From assembly GCF_000737325.1 (NCBI RefSeq), contig NZ_CP011125.1, positions 3,472,001-3,536,000 of the forward strand: a stretch of 64,000 nt of DNA, given 5' to 3'. Below are positions 1,139 through 11,563 of this stretch, piece by piece. Position 1 is the stretch's first letter; each line of letters opens with the position of its first letter. The stretch is from Sandaracinus amylolyticus (lineage in GTDB: Bacteria > Myxococcota_A > Polyangia > Polyangiales > Sandaracinaceae). Both the position numbers and the translations under genes were made by a program. Below the pieces are notes generated by a model. The model did not search any database, was not told where the DNA came from, and saw nothing but the letters and a program-made list of their open reading frames with translations.

Positions 1139-2023
1139 ATGAGCGACGTACGTGTTCCTTCGCGGGAGCGCGACGTTCCCGACGACGAGGTCCCGACTTC
1201 GAGCGAGCTGTGCGCGATGCTCGCGCCCGCACGGCTCGCGCCCGCAGGGCGCGATGACGACGCGCGCGATTCGTTGATCGACATCGTGACCACGCGGCAC
1301 GCACTGGTCCCGACCGAGCCGATCCCGCTGGCCGAGCTCGAGCGTGCGCCGCGCCGGTGGGTGCTCGCGGGCGCGTCGATGCTCGCGGTGCTCACGCTCT
1401 CGATGATCGCGTTCGCCGCAGTGCCTCGCCTGCTCGCGCCCGATGCGCAGCGCGAGCGCAGCATCACGTCGCAGGCGAGCACGACACCGCGCGCGCGTCC
1501 GCCGGAGGTCGTCGCGCCCGCCCCGATCGCGGTGGAGCCCGTGACGCCGAGCGCGACGCTCGCGCCGACGGCGGAGCGTGTGCCGGCGGTGCGCGTCAGG
1601 CCGCACGTCGCGGTCGTGCCCGATGCGGCGCGCACGCGCCCTTCGGCGTCGAGCACGAGCCCGATGCGCACGAGCGATGCGCCGCAGCGCGCGCTCGATC
1701 CCGCGGTCGCGAGCGCGCTCGAGAGCGCCCTCTCGGGTGGCGTGGACGGCGAGGCACGCGAGGCGCTCCCGCTGCTCCCTGCGCAGCGTGACGTGAGCAC
1801 GACGCTGCGCGCGCTCGAGCGTCGCATCGCGGCGTGTCGCGACGGCGAGGGTGGCATCGCCACCGCGCACCTCGTGATCGAAGGGGCGACCGGGCGCGTG
1901 TCGCGCGTCGACGTGCGCGGGGACGGAGCCGACGCGGCGTGCGTCGCTACGATCGTCGAGAGCGCGACCTTCCCGCGGTTCTCGCGCGACGAGCTGCCCG
2001 TCGTGTACCCGTACCGGCTGTGA
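1139..2023 (+). CDS. Membrane-anchored protein with TonB/AgmX-like C-terminal domain
   Basis: Predicted 294 aa. The ATG at 1139 is preceded by a strong AGGAGG six bases upstream, which decides the start over longer readings. The N-terminal about 70 residues are acidic and cytoplasmic. A single transmembrane helix follows at about 74-96, then a long Pro/Ala/Arg-rich linker, then a compact C-terminal domain (about 205-294) with paired cysteines (IAACRDG and DAACVA) and the VIEGATGRVSRVDV strand-turn-strand pattern. That pattern is typical of the AgmX/PglI/TonB-C-like domains common in deltaproteobacteria. The architecture suggests a periplasm-spanning adaptor. It stands 35 bp before the operon starting at 2058, so it may be read into it, though it has no obvious functional link. 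Function is inferred only from architecture. Confidence 0.7.
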   Translation: MSDVRVPSRERDVPDDEVPTSSELCAMLAPARLAPAGRDDDARDSLIDIVTTRHALVPTEPIPLAELERAPRRWVLAGASMLAVLTLSMIAFAAVPRLLAPDAQRERSITSQASTTPRARPPEVVAPAPIAVEPVTPSATLAPTAERVPAVRVRPHVAVVPDAARTRPSASSTSPMRTSDAPQRALDPAVASALESALSGGVDGEAREALPLLPAQRDVSTTLRALERRIAACRDGEGGIATAHLVIEGATGRVSRVDVRGDGADAACVATIVESATFPRFSRDELPVVYPYRL

Positions 2024-2057: not shown

Positions 2058-2300
2058 GTGAGCGAACCGGCGGATCCGAAGCACGACGCCAGCGTCGACA
2101 CCCTGCTCGCCGACGTGCCCTCTCTCGCGCCGCGCCCCGACCTCGTGGAGGTCGCGCGCGGCGCGTTCCGCTTCGCGCAGTTCCTCCTCGACGACGAGGA
2201 GAACCTCACGCGCACCGGGAACCTCAGCGGCGCGGCGAAGGAGCGCCTTCGCGCGCGCACGCTCGAGCTCCTCGGCGTCGACGAGGGCGAGAGCGCGTGA
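2058..2300 (+). CDS. Small acidic protein opening the SMC/MoxR/vWA operon
   Basis: An 80-aa protein starting at GTG 2058; I do not recognise the family. It is soluble, helical and charged, with LDDEENL in the middle and a C-terminal helix (KERLRARTLELLGV). Its stop codon TGA is embedded in the GTG start of the next gene (GTGA, four-base overlap), which indicates translational coupling to the SMC-like ATPase. The short length, the helical character and the coupling suggest an accessory subunit or regulator of the following ATPase, but nothing in the sequence proves that. The coding call is supported by strong GC bias at third codon positions and the exact overlap junction. Confidence 0.72.
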   Translation: MSEPADPKHDASVDTLLADVPSLAPRPDLVEVARGAFRFAQFLLDDEENLTRTGNLSGAAKERLRARTLELLGVDEGESA

Positions 2301-4390
2301 TCCTCTCGCTGCGCCTCAAGGGCTTCCGTCGCTATCGCGACGAGACGTTCACGTTCGCGCCCGGGATCAACTTCGTCGAGGGCGAGAACAACGCCGGCAA
2401 GAGCACGGTGTTCTACGCGATCGAGTACGCGCTCTTCGGGCGCGTCACCGGGCACAAGACGATCGCGGCGCTGATGGCGCCCAAGGCGCGCGCGATGGGC
2501 GTGGAGCTCGTGTTCCGCGGTCGCGACGGACATCGCTATCGGCTCCAGCGCATGCACGCGCTCCCGCCGCGGTCGCGCAGCACGACGATCGGGCACTTCA
2601 CGCTGAAGCGCAGCGCGCGCCCGATCGACGCGCCGAGCGAGGAGGGCGAGGACGTCGAGACGTACGTCGCGAGCTCCGACTTCCAGGATCGCGAGGACGC
2701 GCTCGCCCTCGAGCTCTCACGCGCGCTCGGCCTCACGCGGCGCTTCTTCGACGTCGCCGTGCACCTCCGGCAGGGCGAGATCACTTCGATCCTCGAGGGC
2801 GCGCCGCGCGAGCTCGACATCGTGCTCGGCGTCACGTCGGCGGTCGTCGCGGCGGACGAGATGCGCGCGATGGCGCTGGAGCGCGAGAAGGAGTGCGCGA
2901 CGCTCCCGGTGCTCGAGGAGTCGCTGAAACGCATGGACCTCGATCGCGAGGGAGGACGCGCCGAGATCGAGCGGCTCGCGGCCGAGCGTGCGCGCCTCGA
3001 CGAGCGTCTCGCGTCGTTCGACGGTGAGGCCGCGGCGATCGCGAGCGGGCTCGCGGCGATCGCTCCGCTCGCGGACGTCGGGGCGCGCCTCGAGCGCGCG
3101 CGCGCCGAGCATCGTCGTGCCGCGGAGGCCCGTGCCGACGCGGTCGCCGCGCTCGAGTCGCTCCCGAGCGCCGACGCGACCGGCGCCGAAGAGGTCCAGC
3201 GCGCGTCCGAGCTCGCGATGCGCGAGCGCGAGATCGAAGCGCGGCAGCACACGCTCGACGCGGAGCGTCGCTCGCACGATCGCACGCGCGGCGATCTCGG
3301 CGCGCGGATCGCACGCCGTCGCGACCACGCGCACGCGGGTGCCGGCGCGCGCTGCGAGGCGTGTGGCCAGGCGATCGACGCCGCGCTCGCCGCGCGCGAG
3401 ATCGAGGCATGGAGCGTCGAGCTCGCGCGCACCGATGCGCGCCTCACGGAGATCGACGCGGAGCTCGCGACGCTTCGCGAGTCGGGCGCGATCCTCCGCG
3501 CGGAGTCACGCCGCATGGCGGAGTCGCGTGCTCGAGCCGAGGCGCTCGCGGCGCGTCGCGCCGACGCCGTTCGCCTCGTCGAGCGTCGCAGCGCGTCGCT
3601 CGAGGACGCATCGCACGCGCTCGCGTCCTCGATCGACGCCGCGCGGGCGCTCGTGCCCGACCCGCCGGGCGAAGCCGACGCGCTCGCGGCGCTGCTGTCG
3701 TCGAGGCTCGAGCACGAGCGCGATGCGCTGCGGACCCGCCGCGCGCGCCTCGATGCCGAGCGGGACGTGGTGCGCGAGAGCCACGCGCGCATCGCGAGCG
3801 AGCACGAAGCCCGCACGCGTCGGGCCGCCGAGGTCGAGCGCGAGCACGCGCGAACGCGGGAGGCATGCGAGCGCCTGCGCGAGCTCGCTTCGACCGCGAG
3901 CCGCCTGCGCGTGCTCTCCGAAGGCTTCCGCGAGCTCCAGGCGATCCTCCGCGATCGCGCGGCGAGCGCGCTCGCCGAGCACACGCACACGATCCACCGC
4001 GCGCTCCAGGGCGACGCGCACGACGCGAAGAACGCGGAGCTGAAGAGCGTGCGGCTCGACCCCGAGACCTACGCGCTCCTCGTCACCCCGAACGACATCG
4101 GCCGCGAGGTGCCTGCGAGCGCGGCGCAGGGCGGCGGGCATCGTCTGCTGCTCGGGCTGGCGCTCGAGCTCGCGATCGCGCGCCTGGTCGGGCCTCCGCC
4201 GTTCCTGCTCCTCGACGAGCCGACGTACGGCCTCGATCGACCGCGCCGCGCCGCGCTGCTCGCGCGCATCGCGTCGCTCGAGATCACGCCGCAGATCCTC
4301 CTCATCACGCACCACGACACCGAGGGCGTCACCGGACGTCGGCTTCGCGTCGTGCGACACGGCAAGCACAGCCGCGTGGAGGCCGCGTGA
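2297..4390 (+). CDS. Rad50/SbcC-like SMC-family ATPase with zinc-hook CxxC
   Basis: 697 aa. The N-terminal half of an ABC-type head carries Walker A GENNAGKST at residues 29-37. A long Arg/Glu/Ala-rich coiled coil follows, interrupted exactly at the midpoint by CEAC (Cys353, Cys356), the Rad50 zinc-hook pattern. The C-terminal head has a signature-like AQGGGHR (about 608), Walker B FLLLDE (about 636-641), a D-loop YGLD and an H-loop ITHHD (about 670). The family uses ATP to clamp DNA or tether proteins. The length is shorter than most SbcC/Rad50 (about 850-1200 aa), so the coils are short. No Mre11/SbcD nuclease is adjacent. It overlaps the genes on both sides by four bases, so it is probably a subunit of the complex encoded by 2058-8413 rather than the housekeeping SbcC. 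Confidence 0.9.
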   Translation: MILSLRLKGFRRYRDETFTFAPGINFVEGENNAGKSTVFYAIEYALFGRVTGHKTIAALMAPKARAMGVELVFRGRDGHRYRLQRMHALPPRSRSTTIGHFTLKRSARPIDAPSEEGEDVETYVASSDFQDREDALALELSRALGLTRRFFDVAVHLRQGEITSILEGAPRELDIVLGVTSAVVAADEMRAMALEREKECATLPVLEESLKRMDLDREGGRAEIERLAAERARLDERLASFDGEAAAIASGLAAIAPLADVGARLERARAEHRRAAEARADAVAALESLPSADATGAEEVQRASELAMREREIEARQHTLDAERRSHDRTRGDLGARIARRRDHAHAGAGARCEACGQAIDAALAAREIEAWSVELARTDARLTEIDAELATLRESGAILRAESRRMAESRARAEALAARRADAVRLVERRSASLEDASHALASSIDAARALVPDPPGEADALAALLSSRLEHERDALRTRRARLDAERDVVRESHARIASEHEARTRRAAEVEREHARTREACERLRELASTASRLRVLSEGFRELQAILRDRAASALAEHTHTIHRALQGDAHDAKNAELKSVRLDPETYALLVTPNDIGREVPASAAQGGGHRLLLGLALELAIARLVGPPPFLLLDEPTYGLDRPRRAALLARIASLEITPQILLITHHDTEGVTGRRLRVVRHGKHSRVEAA

Positions 4391-4959
4391 GCGACACGCC
4401 CGCGGAGGTCGATCGCAGCTGGCGCTCGCCGGTCTACCGCGTCTGGTACGAGCTGCACGGCTTCGTCGACGACGGGCTGCGCGATCCGATCCTCACGCAG
4501 CCCGAGATCCTCGCGGGCATGGGCCCGTTCGAAGAGGTCGCGGACGCGGTCGCGACCGCGCGCGCGCAGAAGGTCGTGCTCGGCTTGCTCAAGGCGCGCC
4601 TCGATGCGGAGCCCGCGATCGCGCATCGCTTCGTCGCGCAGCCGGGATGGCCGTGGCTCGCGAAGCTCGTCGCCGCGGTGCGCCTCAAGGAGCTCGCGTC
4701 CGCGCGCATCGTGCAGCGCGGCGCGCGTGGTCGCGCGAGCTACGACTGCACCGAGCTCGTCCGCACGTATCACGGCAAGAGCCTGATGCGCAGCCTCGGG
4801 TTCGAGCGACGTCGTGTGCTCGGCAAGGACGAGCTCGCGAAGCTCGAGGAAGCGTGCGCGCGCATCAAGCTCACGCTGCCGCGCGTCGTCGAGCCGACGA
4901 CGACCGAGCGCTTCTTCTCGGGCGAGGACGAGACGGCGAGCGACGAGACGGAGGACTGA
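4387..4959 (+). CDS. Unknown 190-aa protein between SMC-like and MoxR ATPases
   Basis: The GTG start at 4387 overlaps the stop of the SMC-like gene by four bases. The 190-aa product has no signal peptide or membrane segment. It starts with an aromatic stretch (SPVYRVWYELHGFVDDGL), continues with a helical middle (FEEVADAVATARAQKVVLGLLKA), and has a mixed region with YDCTELVRTYHGKSLMRSLGF before an acidic, Ser/Thr/Glu-rich tail. I do not recognise a family. Two bases separate its stop from the start of the MoxR gene, so all three are one transcript. It may be the specificity or adaptor subunit of the system. Its conserved position would be the main clue to its role. Confidence 0.8.
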   Translation: MSDTPAEVDRSWRSPVYRVWYELHGFVDDGLRDPILTQPEILAGMGPFEEVADAVATARAQKVVLGLLKARLDAEPAIAHRFVAQPGWPWLAKLVAAVRLKELASARIVQRGARGRASYDCTELVRTYHGKSLMRSLGFERRRVLGKDELAKLEEACARIKLTLPRVVEPTTTERFFSGEDETASDETED

Positions 4960-4961
4960 TC

Positions 4962-5858
4962 GTGGATCACGTGGAGCTCTTGGCGCGCGCGAAGGTCGAC
5001 GATCCGCGCAGCGAGTCCGGCGTCGTGCTCGAGGGGCAGTATCGCGAGGCGTACGACGCGATGCTCGACGCCCACAACGCCGGGCTCTTCGTCGGCCTGA
5101 TCGGACCGGTGGGCGCGGGCAAGACCGCGCTGTGCCGCAAGTTCGCCGAGGATCTCGGGCGACCGTTCGAGTGGGTCACGTTCAGCGATCTCGTGCGCCC
5201 CGCGAACCTCGTCGGCAGCTTCGATCCGACGCTCGTGTTCAAGTACGGATACGCACCCGAGGCGTTCGTGCCCGGGCCGTTCACGCTCGCCGCGCTGAAG
5301 GGCGGCGTGTTCCTCGCGAACGAGCTCAACCGCGGCGACGAGTACGTGCTCAACACGATGCTCGACGCGCTCGAGGAGCGTCGCCTCTACATCCCCGCGC
5401 TGCGCGCGTGGTACCGCGTGCACGACGACTTCTATCTGATCGCCGCGATGAACCCGGCCGAGAACCGCGGGACGCGCCGGCTCCCCAGCGCGATCCGCGA
5501 TCGCATCAAGGTCTGGATCCGCCTCGCGTACCCGAAGCGCGCGACCGAGCTGAAGATCGTCGCGCAGCACTGCCGCGAGTACGAGCTCGCGCCGGGACAG
5601 ATCGAGCTCGTGCTCGAGATGGTCGAGCAGACGCGCGAAGATCCCGCGATCGAATCGCCCGCGTCGATCCGCTCGAGCATCGGCATCGCGCGCTTCGCGG
5701 CCGAGCGTGCGCGACGCCTCGGACAGCCGGTCGATCACAAGCTGCTCGCGCAGGCCGCGCGCCTCGTCCTCTCCGAGGCGATCCGCGTGAAGCCCGGGCG
5801 CAACCTCGAGCACTACCTCGACTCGCTGCTCACGAAGACGCTGGGGACCACCGGTTGA
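4962..5858 (+). CDS. MoxR-type AAA+ ATPase with altered Walker B
   Basis: 298 aa from GTG 4962. Walker A is GPVGAGKT (48-55). The equivalent of the MoxR Walker B (usually ADEINR) reads ANELNR at about 119-124, so the magnesium-coordinating Asp is Asn120. Sensor 1 is AAMNP (about 161-165) and a DRIKVWI segment follows around 180, as in the arginine-finger region. The family comprises ring-forming AAA+ ATPases that act as chaperones with vWA partners, and the next gene encodes exactly such a partner with a four-base TTGA overlap. The D-to-N change may slow hydrolysis while keeping ATP binding. It could also be read as a related AAA_5 (dynein-like) ATPase. Family membership is secure; the client is unknown. 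Confidence 0.88.
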   Translation: MDHVELLARAKVDDPRSESGVVLEGQYREAYDAMLDAHNAGLFVGLIGPVGAGKTALCRKFAEDLGRPFEWVTFSDLVRPANLVGSFDPTLVFKYGYAPEAFVPGPFTLAALKGGVFLANELNRGDEYVLNTMLDALEERRLYIPALRAWYRVHDDFYLIAAMNPAENRGTRRLPSAIRDRIKVWIRLAYPKRATELKIVAQHCREYELAPGQIELVLEMVEQTREDPAIESPASIRSSIGIARFAAERARRLGQPVDHKLLAQAARLVLSEAIRVKPGRNLEHYLDSLLTKTLGTTG

Positions 5859-8413
5859 GCGAGATCGACGAGGGACGCTTCCGCGGCGACGAGACACCCG
5901 AGTGGACGCCGATCGCGTTCGCGGTCGAGCTCACGCGGAGGCTCCGTCGTCACGCCGGCATCGCGTGCACGCCGAGCCTGCGCGCGACGATCGCGATCCC
6001 GCGCTTCCTCACCGCGCGCTACGCGCGCACGAAGCGCCTCACGGCGCGCGACTACCTCGACGCGGCGATCCTCACCACGCCTTTCGAAGATCAAGCGATC
6101 GCGGAGTCCGTCGCGCGCGAGCTGCTCTTCCCGCGCGCCGAGACCGCGGGCGCGGCGTCGTCGCCCACGAAGGTGCGCGAGGACGCGAAGGTCGTCGCCA
6201 GCGCGCAGCCCGCCGACCCGGTGTCGGGCATCCTCGGCGATCTCGCGGCGCTCGACGTCGATCTCGACGCGCTCGCCGATCTCGCCGACCTCGAGTCGAT
6301 GATCGACGACGGCACGGAGCCCGACGACGGCGATCCATTCGAGCTCTTCGAGCGCCTCTACTCGTCCGCGGATCCCGAGGAGCGCGCGCTCGGCGAGCTC
6401 GTCGTGCTGTTCGGCGGCGCGGCGGAGATGGCGTCGGTGTCGGCGCGCACCGTCGATCACGTGCGCGTGCTGGTGCGCGAGCGTCTCCTCGCGCACGTCG
6501 GCGCGCTCACGCCCGCGCACGTGCTGCACGCGTGCAACGCCGGGTTCGGCACGCTGCTCGCGCACGAGGCGCGTCATCCCTGGGAGATCGCAGGGTTCCT
6601 CGCGGGGCTCGGACGTGATCGCGAGCTCCGCACCCACCTCGCCGACCTCGCGAGCAGCGCATCGCCGCGCGACCTCGGCGCGACACTGCGCTTCGTCGCG
6701 CCGCACGCGATCGACGCACGCGACTTCCGCCGCGCCGCGCTCGCGCGCCCGCTCGATCTCGCGGAGCACGCGGAGCTGCTGCTCGGCTTCGAAGAGTACG
6801 TCGATCCTCCGGCCGCGCTGATCGCGCGCTCCGCGAAGGAGAGCCCGCGGCGCGCGATGAACGCCGCGCGCACGCTGCGCGAGCGCTTCGGGCACAGCGT
6901 CGAAGATCGTGTGCTCGACGCGTGGGCGAGCGCGCTCGGTCGTGCTCCGACGCTGCGCGAGCTTGTCGACGTCGCGGTCGAGTCGACGCGATATCACGCG
7001 CTGGTCGAGCCCGCGCTCGAGACGCACGTGCTCGAGCTGCGCGAGGAGGCGTCGGACGAGTACGCCGATGCGTCCGACGAGGTCCCGCCGGTGCCCCACG
7101 CGCTCGCGGCGAGCGTCGTGCTCGCGCGCGATCTCGCGGGCACGAAGGTGACGTCGGCGGTGAAGGCCGCGCGCCGGCTCGCCACCGAGGTCCCGTGCAC
7201 GGTGCGCGTCGCCGCGCACTTCCTGCCGCTCCTCGACGAGCTCCTCGAGCATGCGCTCATCCCCGACGATCTCGAGCGTCTCGTCGAGATCGCGACGCTG
7301 CTCGGCATCGATCCCAACGAGGTCTACGACCGCATCGGTCAGGCGCTCGAGCAGCTCCGCGCGATGATCCTCGGCGACGCGCACGACGCCGATCGCTACG
7401 CGCGTCTCGTCGATCGCATCGCGTCGATCCCGCAGGCGCTGCTCGACGAGCTCTGCGGCGCGGCGAGCGCGAGCTCGAACCTCGAGGCGATCGCCGCGCT
7501 GCTCGCCATCGATCTCGGCGGGGCCACGCAGCGCCTCCCCGAGGACCTCGTGATGCAGGGCCTCGGCTTCAAGGGAATCGGCGGCGGATCGAACCTGCTC
7601 AAGCAGTGGTTCTCGCACCGCGGCGCGCTCGTCGATCCGCTCAAGTCCCGCATCAAGGCGATCGCGAAGGAAGCGCTGATCGATCTCGCGTTCGAGTGGC
7701 TCGGCAAGTCGGGCGCGAGCGCCGAGCGCGGCTTGATCCCGGAGAGCCGCACCCGTCCGATGCGCGCCGGCGACGACCTCGATCTCCTCGATCTCGACGC
7801 GAGCCTCGAGCGTGTGATCGACGAAGGACGCCGCCTCGACGACGCGCGCGACGACGACCTGCTCGTCTCGGAGACGGTGCGCGGGCGCGCCGCGGTCTCG
7901 GTGCTGATCGACATCTCGGGCTCGATGAGCGGGCCCGACCTCGCGATGTGCTCGATCGCCGTCGTGATGCTCCTCGGCAAGCTGCGCGCCGACGAGGTCA
8001 GCCTCGCGCTCTTCGAGAGTGACACCCACGTCGTGAAGCGCTTCGCCGACGAGGCCGATCTCGACGCGGTCGCGGACGAGCTGCTCGATCTCCACGCGCG
8101 CGGTGGCACCTGCGTCGATCAGGCGCTGCGCTTCGTCGAGGAGGAGATGAGCGGCGTCGAGGCCACGCTGCGCGTGCTCTTCGTGCTGAGCGACTTCGCG
8201 TTCAGCGAGCGGCCCGAAGAGCTGCGTACGCTGGGATCACGCATCGCCGATCACGGCGTGTCGCTGATCGCCGCCGCGCACGGCTACGTGATGAAGGAGA
8301 GCCGCGACGCGCTGGTCTCGTCGATCGGCGGCGAGACGATGACGATGAAGAAGGCCGAGGAGCTGCCCGCGCTACTCCTCGACGTGCTCTCGCGCATCGC
8401 CGACGGCCGGTAG
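5855..8413 (+). CDS. Large vWA-domain protein, partner of the MoxR ATPase
   Basis: 852 aa; the TTG at 5855 overlaps the MoxR stop and is chosen because no earlier start fits the junction. The first about 650 residues are helical and unfamiliar: an N-terminal segment (LTARDYLDAAILTTPFEDQAIAE) resembles MoxR-partner proteins, followed by an acidic linker and repeated Leu-rich helices. The C-terminal vWA domain has a complete MIDAS: DISGS with Asp686, Ser688 and Ser690, a later Thr in GGTCVDQAL (about 750), and an Asp in VLSDFAF (about 779). vWA-MoxR pairs are known chaperone-like modules in which metal-dependent vWA binding selects clients. It ends the operon, five bases short of a convergent gene. 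No signal peptide or transmembrane helix is visible, so it is cytoplasmic. Confidence 0.85.
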   Translation: MSEIDEGRFRGDETPEWTPIAFAVELTRRLRRHAGIACTPSLRATIAIPRFLTARYARTKRLTARDYLDAAILTTPFEDQAIAESVARELLFPRAETAGAASSPTKVREDAKVVASAQPADPVSGILGDLAALDVDLDALADLADLESMIDDGTEPDDGDPFELFERLYSSADPEERALGELVVLFGGAAEMASVSARTVDHVRVLVRERLLAHVGALTPAHVLHACNAGFGTLLAHEARHPWEIAGFLAGLGRDRELRTHLADLASSASPRDLGATLRFVAPHAIDARDFRRAALARPLDLAEHAELLLGFEEYVDPPAALIARSAKESPRRAMNAARTLRERFGHSVEDRVLDAWASALGRAPTLRELVDVAVESTRYHALVEPALETHVLELREEASDEYADASDEVPPVPHALAASVVLARDLAGTKVTSAVKAARRLATEVPCTVRVAAHFLPLLDELLEHALIPDDLERLVEIATLLGIDPNEVYDRIGQALEQLRAMILGDAHDADRYARLVDRIASIPQALLDELCGAASASSNLEAIAALLAIDLGGATQRLPEDLVMQGLGFKGIGGGSNLLKQWFSHRGALVDPLKSRIKAIAKEALIDLAFEWLGKSGASAERGLIPESRTRPMRAGDDLDLLDLDASLERVIDEGRRLDDARDDDLLVSETVRGRAAVSVLIDISGSMSGPDLAMCSIAVVMLLGKLRADEVSLALFESDTHVVKRFADEADLDAVADELLDLHARGGTCVDQALRFVEEEMSGVEATLRVLFVLSDFAFSERPEELRTLGSRIADHGVSLIAAAHGYVMKESRDALVSSIGGETMTMKKAEELPALLLDVLSRIADGR

Positions 8414-9322: not shown

Positions 9323-11563
9323 TCAATAATGGCGCTCCAGGACGTACCAGCCGAAGCCGCGGAGCATGACCTTCACGAGGGACGCCTCGACGAGCGGATC
9401 GAAGCGCGCCCACGCGTCCTCGACGAGGTCACGCGCCTGCTGCTTGCACGCCGCGATCGCGCCCGAGCTCGCCATCATCTCCACCGCGCGCGCGACGAGC
9501 TTCGTGTCGCTCGGCTTCGACGCGACGATGCGGAACAGCTCGACGCGCTCCTCGCGCCCGAGCAGCGACATCGCCTTCGCAAAGGGCAGGGTGACCTTGC
9601 CGTGCATCACGTCCTCGCCGCGCGTCTTCAGGTCACCGCGGAAGCCCTCGAGGTTGAGCACGTCGTCGACGATCTGGAACGCGAGCCCGAGCGCCTCGAA
9701 GAACCCGCCGACCGCCTCGATCTGCGCCTCGGTGCCCTGGCCCGCGAGCGCGCCCATCCGCGCGAGCGCGGCCGCCGGCGCCGCGGTCTTCAGCCGATGG
9801 ATCGCGAGCACGCGCTCCTCGAGATCCGCGCTGTCGCCCGACTCGACCGCGGCCGGCACGAACTGGTGCAGGCCCGCGAGGTCGAGCGCCTGTCCGCCGT
9901 GGCCCGCGCGCAGCGCCTCGAAGTAGAGGTCGTAGATGCGCACCTGCCGCGCCGACGACATCGCCTCGTCGCGCAGCAGCTTCTGCCCGAGGAAGTACGC
10001 CGCGGTGCCCGAGTTGATCGCGATCGCGTCGCCGTGGACCGCGTGGCACGTCGGCCCGCCGCGCCGCACCTCCGAGCGATCCTGCACGTCGTCGACGATC
10101 AGCGATCCGGTGTGCATCAGCTCGGGCATCGCGAGCCAGCGCACGTACTTGCGCGAGTCGCCGCCGACCACGTCGCAGCACGCGAGCGCCGCGTACGAGC
10201 GCCACGACTTGCCGCCGCGATCGACGATCTCGCGGATCGGCTTCGTGAGGTAGTCGGCGACGAGCTGCACGTCGACGCCGCGCATGTACTGCTCGCGCTC
10301 GCGCGACGCGATCAGCTCGCGCATCTCCGCGAACGACGGCTCGAGCGGCATGACCGAGTGCACGCTGCGCCGCGTCTCCGTGCCGACCGCGGAGAAGAAC
10401 TCGTCGAGCGTGTCGATGTGCGAGAAGCCGCTGCGCTCGACGAAGCCCACGCCGCGCACCGCTTCACCGGCGATCGTCCCGCGGACCTCGACGCGCCCTT
10501 CCCAGAACGCCGGCTCCGAGAGGACCGTGATGAACTCCTGATCGTCGACCGGCGCGACCAGCTCGAGATCGACGCGCGCGTCGGGCGCGCGCAGGCGCCA
10601 CGCGGTCGGATACTCGTTGAACGTGCGCGTCGACACGAAGCGCCCGCTCGCTTCGAGCGTGAACGCCTCGTGCGTCGCGACGCGTCCGTCGCGCCCGATG
10701 ATCTTCGCGCGTCCCTCGAGCCGCTTCTCGCCCTCGCGCGCGAGATCGAAGAGGTCGTACGCCGAGAGCTCGATGCCGCCCTCGAGCTGCAGCGAGACCC
10801 AGTTCCACGCGACCTCGCGCGGCGTCTCGTCTTCCTCGTCGTCCTTCTCGCGATGACCGCCGAACTCGTGGTCGTACCAGCCGATCGCGCGCTCGACCGC
10901 GACGTGCTGTCCGTCGAGCACGAGCGTCCCGGTGACCGTCGCGCGCGGACAGAAGTAGTAGAACATGTCCTCGCCGCCGGGCCCGCGGACGACGCCGTCG
11001 TCGCCGTGGCGCACCACCGGCTTGTCGAGGCGGAACCGCAGATCGCACCCGACCGCGCGATCGGTGTGACGCAGCGAGAGCGAGTACGTGCCGTCGTCGT
11101 GCTTCACGAAGCGCTGGCCGTCGTAGTCGAGCTCCAGCCGGCGCGTCGCGACGGTCACGTCGCCCTCGAACATGCGATCCGGGAGCGGCACCTCGCCCTT
11201 CACGAGCACCTCGCGGATCGCGCGGCGCAGGCGCGGATCGCGCGTGCCCTCGCCGCGCTCGAGCTTCTCGAGCCCGATGCGCGGCGCCTGCTTGTCGACG
11301 AGCGAGTCCGCGACGTACTCGCCGCGGTCGAGATCGACGATCGCCCACGTGAGCGAGTGCGCGTGCTGGCGCTCCTTCGTGCGTTCGTCGACGCCGCTGA
11401 GGATGCGGAAGAACGACGCGAAGAGCGCCAGTCGCCGCCCGCCCGCGACCTCGAGGTGGCTGTTGACGTACCACCACTCGGTCGTCGACGACGCGTGTGG
11501 AAGGTCGTGAAGGTCGAGGTCGATCGGTCCGGGCAGAGGCCAATCGGTCGGTCGATCCAGCAT
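9323..11563 (-). CDS. Fusion: CrtC/AttH lipocalin-like hydratase domain + polyprenyl diphosphate synthase
   Basis: 746 aa from ATG 11563, which has AGGAG six bases upstream; a longer reading to 11653 lacks such a site. The N-terminal about 390 residues resemble the CrtC/AttH (hydroxyneurosporene synthase-like) fold: TEWWYVN near 28-34, then alternating strands and FFRILSG, FYYFCPR and WYDHEFGGH patches. The C-terminal about 350 residues are an all-helical isoprenyl diphosphate synthase. Its first aspartate-rich motif is DDVQD (491-495) and its second is DDVLN (633-637); Asn in the last position also occurs in some GGPP synthases. KxxQ/RGG-type flanks are present. The domains imply chain elongation of prenyl diphosphates and water addition to a polyene or related lipid, plausibly in carotenoid or terpenoid biosynthesis. 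No other carotenoid genes are nearby, and the substrate is unknown. Confidence 0.85.
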   Translation of the reverse strand: MLDRPTDWPLPGPIDLDLHDLPHASSTTEWWYVNSHLEVAGGRRLALFASFFRILSGVDERTKERQHAHSLTWAIVDLDRGEYVADSLVDKQAPRIGLEKLERGEGTRDPRLRRAIREVLVKGEVPLPDRMFEGDVTVATRRLELDYDGQRFVKHDDGTYSLSLRHTDRAVGCDLRFRLDKPVVRHGDDGVVRGPGGEDMFYYFCPRATVTGTLVLDGQHVAVERAIGWYDHEFGGHREKDDEEDETPREVAWNWVSLQLEGGIELSAYDLFDLAREGEKRLEGRAKIIGRDGRVATHEAFTLEASGRFVSTRTFNEYPTAWRLRAPDARVDLELVAPVDDQEFITVLSEPAFWEGRVEVRGTIAGEAVRGVGFVERSGFSHIDTLDEFFSAVGTETRRSVHSVMPLEPSFAEMRELIASREREQYMRGVDVQLVADYLTKPIREIVDRGGKSWRSYAALACCDVVGGDSRKYVRWLAMPELMHTGSLIVDDVQDRSEVRRGGPTCHAVHGDAIAINSGTAAYFLGQKLLRDEAMSSARQVRIYDLYFEALRAGHGGQALDLAGLHQFVPAAVESGDSADLEERVLAIHRLKTAAPAAALARMGALAGQGTEAQIEAVGGFFEALGLAFQIVDDVLNLEGFRGDLKTRGEDVMHGKVTLPFAKAMSLLGREERVELFRIVASKPSDTKLVARAVEMMASSGAIAACKQQARDLVEDAWARFDPLVEASLVKVMLRGFGWYVLERHY

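What the first reader, a model, noticed from the sequence alone, without database searches (positions are those of the whole stretch)
2058..8413. Five-gene overlapping operon joining an SMC/Rad50-like ATPase to a MoxR-vWA pair
Every junction is a four-base overlap or a two-base gap, and all five genes begin with GTG or TTG. The order is an 80-aa protein, a 697-aa SMC-like ATPase with a central CxxC hook, a 190-aa unknown, a MoxR AAA+ ATPase and an 852-aa vWA protein. vWA-MoxR pairs are known chaperone-like modules, and vWA-MoxR-centred ternary systems have been proposed as conflict systems. An SMC-like DNA or cluster-binding subunit added to such a pair, with two unknown partners, is not a combination I recognise. 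It could be a DNA-sensing or defence complex or a MoxR-driven assembly machine.
Basis: partly seen in the sequence, partly recalled or inferred. Interest (0 to 1): 0.75.

Follow-up and report, generated by a model that had tools for sequence, protein, structure and literature searches.

The report
Five-gene Rad50-like/MoxR-vWA cassette
A rare set of five genes that always travel together in scattered myxobacteria appears to couple a DNA-clamping ATPase of the Rad50 type to a ring-shaped protein-remodelling motor, a pairing I found described nowhere, whose job (DNA surveillance, defence or repair) is unproven.

Summary
Genes A (80 aa), B (697 aa, Rad50-like ATPase with CxxC hook), C (190 aa, unknown), D (298 aa, MoxR AAA+) and E (852 aa, C-terminal vWA with intact MIDAS) lie at 2058-8413 with the stated junctions. 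The same order A-B-C-D-E recurs in six other loci, covering four myxobacterial families, mostly with 4-base overlaps. In 377 sampled Myxococcota genomes, B, C and full-length E occur in exactly the same four. Gene trees are correlated (r 0.85-0.96) and all five genes are under purifying selection. No Lamassu effector, no adjacent Mre11/SbcD, no known third component of MoxR-vWA conflict systems and no defence-gene neighbourhood was found. New details: D has a Walker B Asp-to-Asn change, shared with nearby two-gene MoxR-vWA pairs; B keeps its catalytic Glu but has Gly in its signature motif; C ends in an invariant IKLTLPxxxExTTTExFF motif. Best reading: MoxR-vWA remodels or resets a DNA-bound Rad50-like clamp, with A and C as adaptors. 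Defence versus genome maintenance is undecided.

The parts
2058..2300 (+). Gene A, 80-aa acidic small protein, no known family; conserved core LLDD(D/E)(D/E)xLTRxGNLxG...LRxRxxELLG
   Evidence: First gene at all 7 loci; no Pfam, NCBIfam or PADLOC family
2297..4390 (+). Gene B, 697-aa Rad50/LmuB-like coiled-coil ABC ATPase: Walker A GENNAGKS (29), Q-loop, CxxC zinc hook (353-356), signature AQGGGHR (611), Walker B/D-loop LLLDEPTYGLD (637), H-loop THH (671)
   Evidence: motifs aligned in all loci
4387..4959 (+). Gene C, 190-aa unknown, predicted mostly helical with a beta-hairpin (108-120) and an invariant C-terminal motif IKLTLPxxxExTTTExFF (160-177)
   Evidence: 7 of 7 loci; no family; AlphaFold pLDDT 73; no fold match
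4962..5858 (+). Gene D, 298-aa MoxR-clade AAA+ ATPase; Walker A GPVGAGKT (48), Walker B variant FLANELNR (117) with Asp replaced by Asn, Arg-finger region AIRDRI (177)
   Evidence: AAA_5/AAA_3, GvpN-like and midasin-like; best conserved gene, 71-84% between families; Asn in 7 of 7
5855..8413 (+). Gene E, 852-aa MoxR partner: short helical N-terminal domain (1-95), low-complexity linker (95-158), all-helical solenoid-like middle (160-550), pre-vWA segment, C-terminal CoxE-like vWA (about 683-845) with MIDAS D686-S688-S690/T752/D780
   Evidence: VWA_2, VWA_CoxE; MIDAS in all complete copies; AlphaFold helical solenoid

Best explanation
The five genes encode one ATP-driven complex. A Rad50-like homodimer (B), joined through its zinc hook, clamps DNA or DNA ends using its ATPase heads. 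A and C are small adaptors that take the place of the absent Mre11/SbcD. A MoxR ring (D) carries the large co-chaperone E; E's vWA MIDAS grips an acidic residue of the client, most simply the invariant glutamates in C's C-terminal motif or a site on B, and E's helical scaffold holds the complex. D's ATP cycle twists or pulls E, so that the B clamp is loaded, opened or reset. Shown: gene order, co-occurrence, motifs, selection. Inferred from the NorQ-NorD and midasin precedents: that D works through E on a bound client. Inferred only: that the client is B/C, and that the substrate is DNA. The biological role that I favour slightly is surveillance of abnormal or foreign DNA; genome maintenance is nearly as likely.
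For: Strict unit: the same order at 7 loci; B, C and full-length E found in the same 4 of 377 genomes; pairwise distances of the five proteins correlate at r 0.85-0.96. Translational coupling: all four junctions are 4-base overlaps in L003 and L004. B is Rad50-like with hook and intact catalytic Glu. E has a complete MIDAS and D is a MoxR with Walker A and Arg-finger region. In NorQD, MIDAS residues are needed for client activity but not for binding the ATPase, and an acidic client residue is the ligand (PMC9976466); NorQ twists a linker in NorD (PMC13036017). C's invariant tail holds the kind of acidic residues a MIDAS can bind.
Against: No interaction data of any kind and no complex prediction was possible. 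D has Asn for the Mg-binding Walker B Asp, so its hydrolysis may be weak. B has Gly at the signature serine position. In L002 a foreign gene sits between D and E, so D/E coupling is not always strict. The AlphaFold model of E is poor in the vWA.
Confidence: 0.45

Rival explanations
1. It is an anti-phage or anti-plasmid abortive system of the Lamassu/ABC-3C kind: B senses DNA ends or structures of an invader and switches on the MoxR-vWA pair, which is itself the effector, for example by dismantling an essential complex.
For: B matches PADLOC LmuB over its full length (E 7e-25) and MADS mad3 (E 2e-25). LmuB is about 650 aa with short coiled coils and often a CPxCG-type hook (PMC10586767). Patchy presence: 3 of 10 genomes in the family, 4 of 377 in the phylum. 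Different neighbours in each family.
Against: B scores about as well against archaeal Rad50 (E 1e-23), so the LmuB match is not specific. LmuB generally has a Walker B Glu-to-Gln change; B keeps the Glu in all 7. No LmuA or effector domain and no LmuC match. The immediate flanks are metabolic or unknown genes; a single STAND/NACHT-like gene lies near one locus. Absent from plasmid, phage and viral collections. No fast evolution: dN/dS 0.055-0.23.
Confidence: 0.28
2. It is a housekeeping-type DNA repair or chromosome-structure accessory: an SbcCD-like end or hairpin binder without a nuclease, turned over by MoxR-vWA much as midasin strips factors off pre-ribosomes.
For: Rad50 architecture; strong purifying selection; same syntenic place in the two congeners; D is 71-84% conserved across families; D's profile matches midasin best among solved structures (E 1e-27).
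Against: Absent from about 99% of sampled Myxococcota and from 7 of 10 genomes of its own family, so it is not a core function. The genome already has SbcCD. No nuclease, helicase or repair gene in the unit.
Confidence: 0.22
3. D and E are an assembly or metal-insertion chaperone (NorQD/CbbQO/CoxDE type) whose client is not DNA-related; B is an accessory ABC ATPase, not a DNA clamp.
For: E is CoxE-like and D is of the GvpN/NorQ/CbbQ type. The nearest relatives are two-gene MoxR-vWA pairs without B.
Against: No oxidoreductase, Rubisco or other metalloenzyme gene is part of the unit at any locus. B carries the full coiled-coil, hook and Rad50 head arrangement.
Confidence: 0.05

Closest known systems
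NorQ-NorD, CbbQ-CbbO, CoxD-CoxE and other MoxR-vWA remodellers
   Same: MoxR AAA+ ring ATPase next to a large partner with an N-terminal helical part, a linker and a C-terminal vWA with intact MIDAS
   Different: Walker B Asp is Asn in D; E has an extra helical middle of about 400 aa; three further subunits including a Rad50-like ATPase; no metalloenzyme client gene
MoxR-vWA-centric ternary conflict systems (VMAP, iSTAND, FtsH, beta-propeller; PMC7159879)
   Same: MoxR-vWA core plus further dedicated subunits, in bacteria with a multicellular habit
   Different: Third component is a Rad50-like ABC ATPase, which that paper does not mention; no effector domain after the vWA; no VMAP, iSTAND, FtsH or propeller domain; bpMoxR match below its cut-off
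Lamassu / ABC-3C (LmuA-LmuB-LmuC, DdmABC)
   Same: Short Rad50-like ATPase of about 650-700 aa with hook, plus a small subunit beside it
   Different: No LmuA effector, no LmuC match, catalytic Glu kept; MoxR-vWA pair instead
Rad50-Mre11 / SbcCD
   Same: ABC head, coiled coil, zinc hook
   Different: Much shorter than SbcC; no Mre11/SbcD partner; the genome has its own SbcCD elsewhere; signature motif QGGGHR
Two-gene MoxR-vWA pairs of Myxococcota (L091-L093)
   Same: Next closest vWA relatives of E found; same Asn in Walker B; MoxR and vWA genes overlap
   Different: vWA protein only about 300 aa; no A, B or C beside them

Membership tests
MoxR-vWA pair | MoxR-clade AAA+ with Walker A and Arg finger | tested here: met
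   AAA_5 E 9e-20, AAA_3 E 2e-13; GPVG(A/S)GKT and DRI in all copies
MoxR-vWA pair | Canonical Walker B Asp-Glu | tested here: not met
   ANEL in 7 of 7 copies; paralogues have ADEI; the two-gene pairs also have NE
MoxR-vWA pair | Adjacent vWA partner with MIDAS DxSxS-T-D | tested here: met
   DISGS, GGT and SD in all 6 copies that reach the vWA
MoxR-vWA ternary conflict systems | Third component is VMAP, iSTAND, FtsH or beta-propeller | tested here: not met
   No such family in any of the five proteins at E up to 1; bpMoxR 18.4 bits against a cut-off of 27
MoxR-vWA ternary conflict systems | Effector domain fused after the vWA | tested here: not met
   The vWA ends the protein (matched to 823 of 852)
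Rad50/SbcC | Split ABC head with coiled coil and CxxC hook | tested here: met
Rad50/SbcC | Adjacent Mre11/SbcD nuclease | tested here: not met
   No nuclease family among A, C, D and E; SbcD lies elsewhere, beside another SbcC-like gene
Lamassu/ABC-3C | LmuB-like ATPase | tested here: inconclusive
   PADLOC LmuB E 7e-25 over the full length, but Rad50 profiles score alike
Lamassu/ABC-3C | Walker B Glu-to-Gln in LmuB | tested here: not met
   LDEPT in 7 of 7; feature as given in PMC10586767
Lamassu/ABC-3C | LmuC middle component | tested here: inconclusive
   No LmuC or ABC-3C middle-component match for C or A, but such proteins diverge fast and may be missed
Lamassu/ABC-3C | LmuA effector | tested here: not met
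   No effector domain in the unit
SMC-kleisin complexes including Wadjet | Hinge domain, kleisin and KITE subunits | tested here: inconclusive
   B has a hook, not a hinge match; no kleisin or KITE profile for A or C; the fold search of C found nothing clear
MoxR-vWA pair | ATP-dependent client remodelling | not testable with these tools
   Needs biochemistry

The most novel reading that the evidence does not exclude
A fifth class of MoxR-vWA-centred system in which a Rad50-like DNA sensor hands its signal to, or is reset by, an AAA+/MIDAS remodeller: a new anti-invader or DNA-surveillance machine with two new protein families.
Probability: 0.35. Interest if true: 0.78.

Novelty: new variant of a known kind. 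Interest (0 to 1): 0.55.

Why it matters
MoxR-vWA motors are known mainly as enzyme activators and as cores of proposed conflict systems; Rad50-like ATPases are DNA sensors. If the two work on each other here, this would be a direct case of a AAA+/MIDAS machine controlling an SMC-type clamp, and it would give two new protein families (A and C) a testable role. The cassette is small and self-contained, so it can be moved into a laboratory host and tested as a whole.

Tried and rejected
Rejected: that B is the genome's own SbcC (SbcC/SbcD lie at 6,301,874-6,303,861). Rejected: that the pieces occur apart from each other in Myxococcota. Rejected as evidence: the GTG/TTG starts. Rejected: that the D-to-N Walker B is unique to this cassette; the two-gene pairs share it. 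Led nowhere: fold search of C (best VIA Z 4.6 over 57 residues, to an XPB/TFIIH domain, within noise); fold search of E (only generic helical solenoids, Z up to 7.4); sequence search of A and C against solved structures; plasmid, phage and viral collections; a weak match of one C copy to PADLOC PDC-M14B (E 0.004, one of the copies tested); an empty-site comparison, because the neighbouring CrtC/prenyl-synthase gene is itself confined to the two congeners. A weak profile likeness between E's N-terminus and D's AAA lid (hhalign probability 69, 43 columns) is recorded but not used. Limit: the only scan outside Myxococcota used exact 8-residue peptides of D, so presence in other phyla is not excluded.

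Full report
What is there. The window lies at 3,472,001-3,536,000 of a single 10.33-Mb chromosome of a myxobacterium. Near-identical loci and a Sandaracinaceae MAG place it in Sandaracinaceae; the size suggests Sandaracinus (own knowledge). They are called A to E here: A 2058-2300, B 2297-4390, C 4387-4959, D 4962-5858, E 5855-8413.

What each protein is. A has no family. B is a short Rad50-like ATPase: AAA_23 E 6e-15, archaeal Rad50 profile E 1e-23, PADLOC LmuB E 7e-25 and mad3 E 2e-25; solved Rad50 heads match its profile at E 3e-24. Its motifs in the aligned copies are Walker A GxNNAGK, a CxxC hook, a signature QGGGHR in which Gly stands where the LSGGQ serine would be, Walker B LDEPT with the catalytic Glu, and an H-loop. 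C has no family. D is a MoxR AAA+ nearest to GvpN-type profiles (E 1e-21, far below that family's cut-off) and to midasin among solved structures. E ends in a CoxE-like vWA with a complete MIDAS. Its residues 160-500 are modelled as a helical solenoid at pLDDT of about 80; the vWA itself is badly modelled because only three sequences could be used.

The unit is conserved. One genome scan with D found L002 (Sandaracinaceae), L003 and L004 (both Kofleriaceae). Whole-genome searches added G288 (same genus), G214 and G331. All have A-B-C-D-E in this order. In L003 and L004 all four junctions overlap by four bases; L007 has similar tight junctions. In L002 a GH123-like gene on the opposite strand sits between D and E, the only break seen. 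In 377 Myxococcota genomes full-length E, C and B each occur in the same four genomes and no other; the next-best E matches cover only the vWA. Pairwise distances of the five proteins correlate at 0.85-0.96. Between the two congeners dN/dS is 0.23, 0.18, 0.11, 0.055 and 0.15 for A to E. D is the most conserved (71-84% between families), the others 36-62% apart from the closest relatives.

It is rare and scattered: 3 of 10 Sandaracinaceae genomes have D at over 80% identity, 2 of 30 genomes of the Kofleriaceae family have E, and 1 of 5 in G214's order. The flanks differ between families and are ordinary or unknown: CrtC/prenyl synthase, GMC oxidoreductase and cytochrome c, M23 peptidase, GH1 and FKBP. 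One locus (L066) has a STAND/NACHT-like gene two genes away. In the two congeners the place is the same. No relative was found in plasmid, phage or viral collections.

The genome has an SbcC-like gene at 6,301,874 directly beside an SbcD at 6,303,034, and a second Rad50-like/SbcD-like neighbour pair near 6,938,163. So B is not the sole SbcC and has no need of a distant SbcD. B and C were not found apart from E (above). Both refutations fail.

New details. (1) D has Asn where Walker B has the Mg-binding Asp: FLANELNR in 7 of 7, against ADEINR in the paralogues of the same family. Two-gene MoxR-vWA pairs L091-L093, which hold the next-best vWA matches, also have NE(L/I)NR. So the change belongs to a wider MoxR clade from which this cassette probably drew its pair (inference; the deeper branches of the tree are weakly supported). 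(2) C ends in IKLTLPxxxExTTTExFF, invariant in seven copies whose remaining sequence is down to 36-46% identity. It precedes a disordered tail, so it is a good candidate for a docking peptide (inference). (3) B keeps its catalytic Glu, unlike typical LmuB (PMC10586767).

How it probably works. In NorQ-NorD the vWA sits on the MoxR ring by a finger in the pore, the MIDAS contacts an acidic residue of the client, and the ring's ATP cycle twists the linker of the vWA protein (PMC9976466; PMC13036017). D and E have the matching parts. The only other constant products of the cassette are A, B and C, so the simplest client is the Rad50-like B with its small partners. I infer that D/E load, open or reset the B clamp on DNA. 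Whether the signal ends in defence or in repair is not shown. Patchiness and LmuB likeness favour surveillance of foreign DNA; lack of an effector, of defence neighbours and of fast evolution argues against a classical abortive system.

Known or new. No paper in the held library joins these parts. The census of MoxR-vWA conflict systems lists four kinds, none with a Rad50-like part (PMC7159879). Preprints and subscription journals were not searched. I call it a new variant of a known kind: a MoxR-vWA-centred multi-subunit system with a Rad50-like ATPase and two orphan subunits.

Noticed in passing
window 9323-11563 (-): CrtC-type lipocalin (carotenoid 1,2-hydratase-like) fused to a polyprenyl synthetase in one 746-aa protein; found only in the two congeners among 10 genomes of the family.
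   Followed up: partly
L002 7578-9830 (-): A secreted GH123-like gene inserted on the opposite strand between D and E of the cassette in a Sandaracinaceae MAG.
   Followed up: partly
L091 2-2139, L092 6565-8249, L093 6056-7821: Overlapping two-gene MoxR-vWA pairs with vWA proteins of about 300 aa, and with Asn in place of the Walker B Asp, as in the cassette.
   Followed up: partly
L066 5524-7998 (-): An 824-aa STAND/NACHT-like NTPase two genes upstream of the cassette in G331, the only defence-like neighbour seen.
   Followed up: no
G000:C1 6938163-6939469: A second Rad50-like/SbcD-like neighbour pair in the same genome, apart from the main SbcCD.
   Followed up: no
window 1217-2023 (+): The 268-aa gene just upstream (34-base gap) is on the same strand but is absent from the cassette in other families; unknown in Pfam.
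   Followed up: partly
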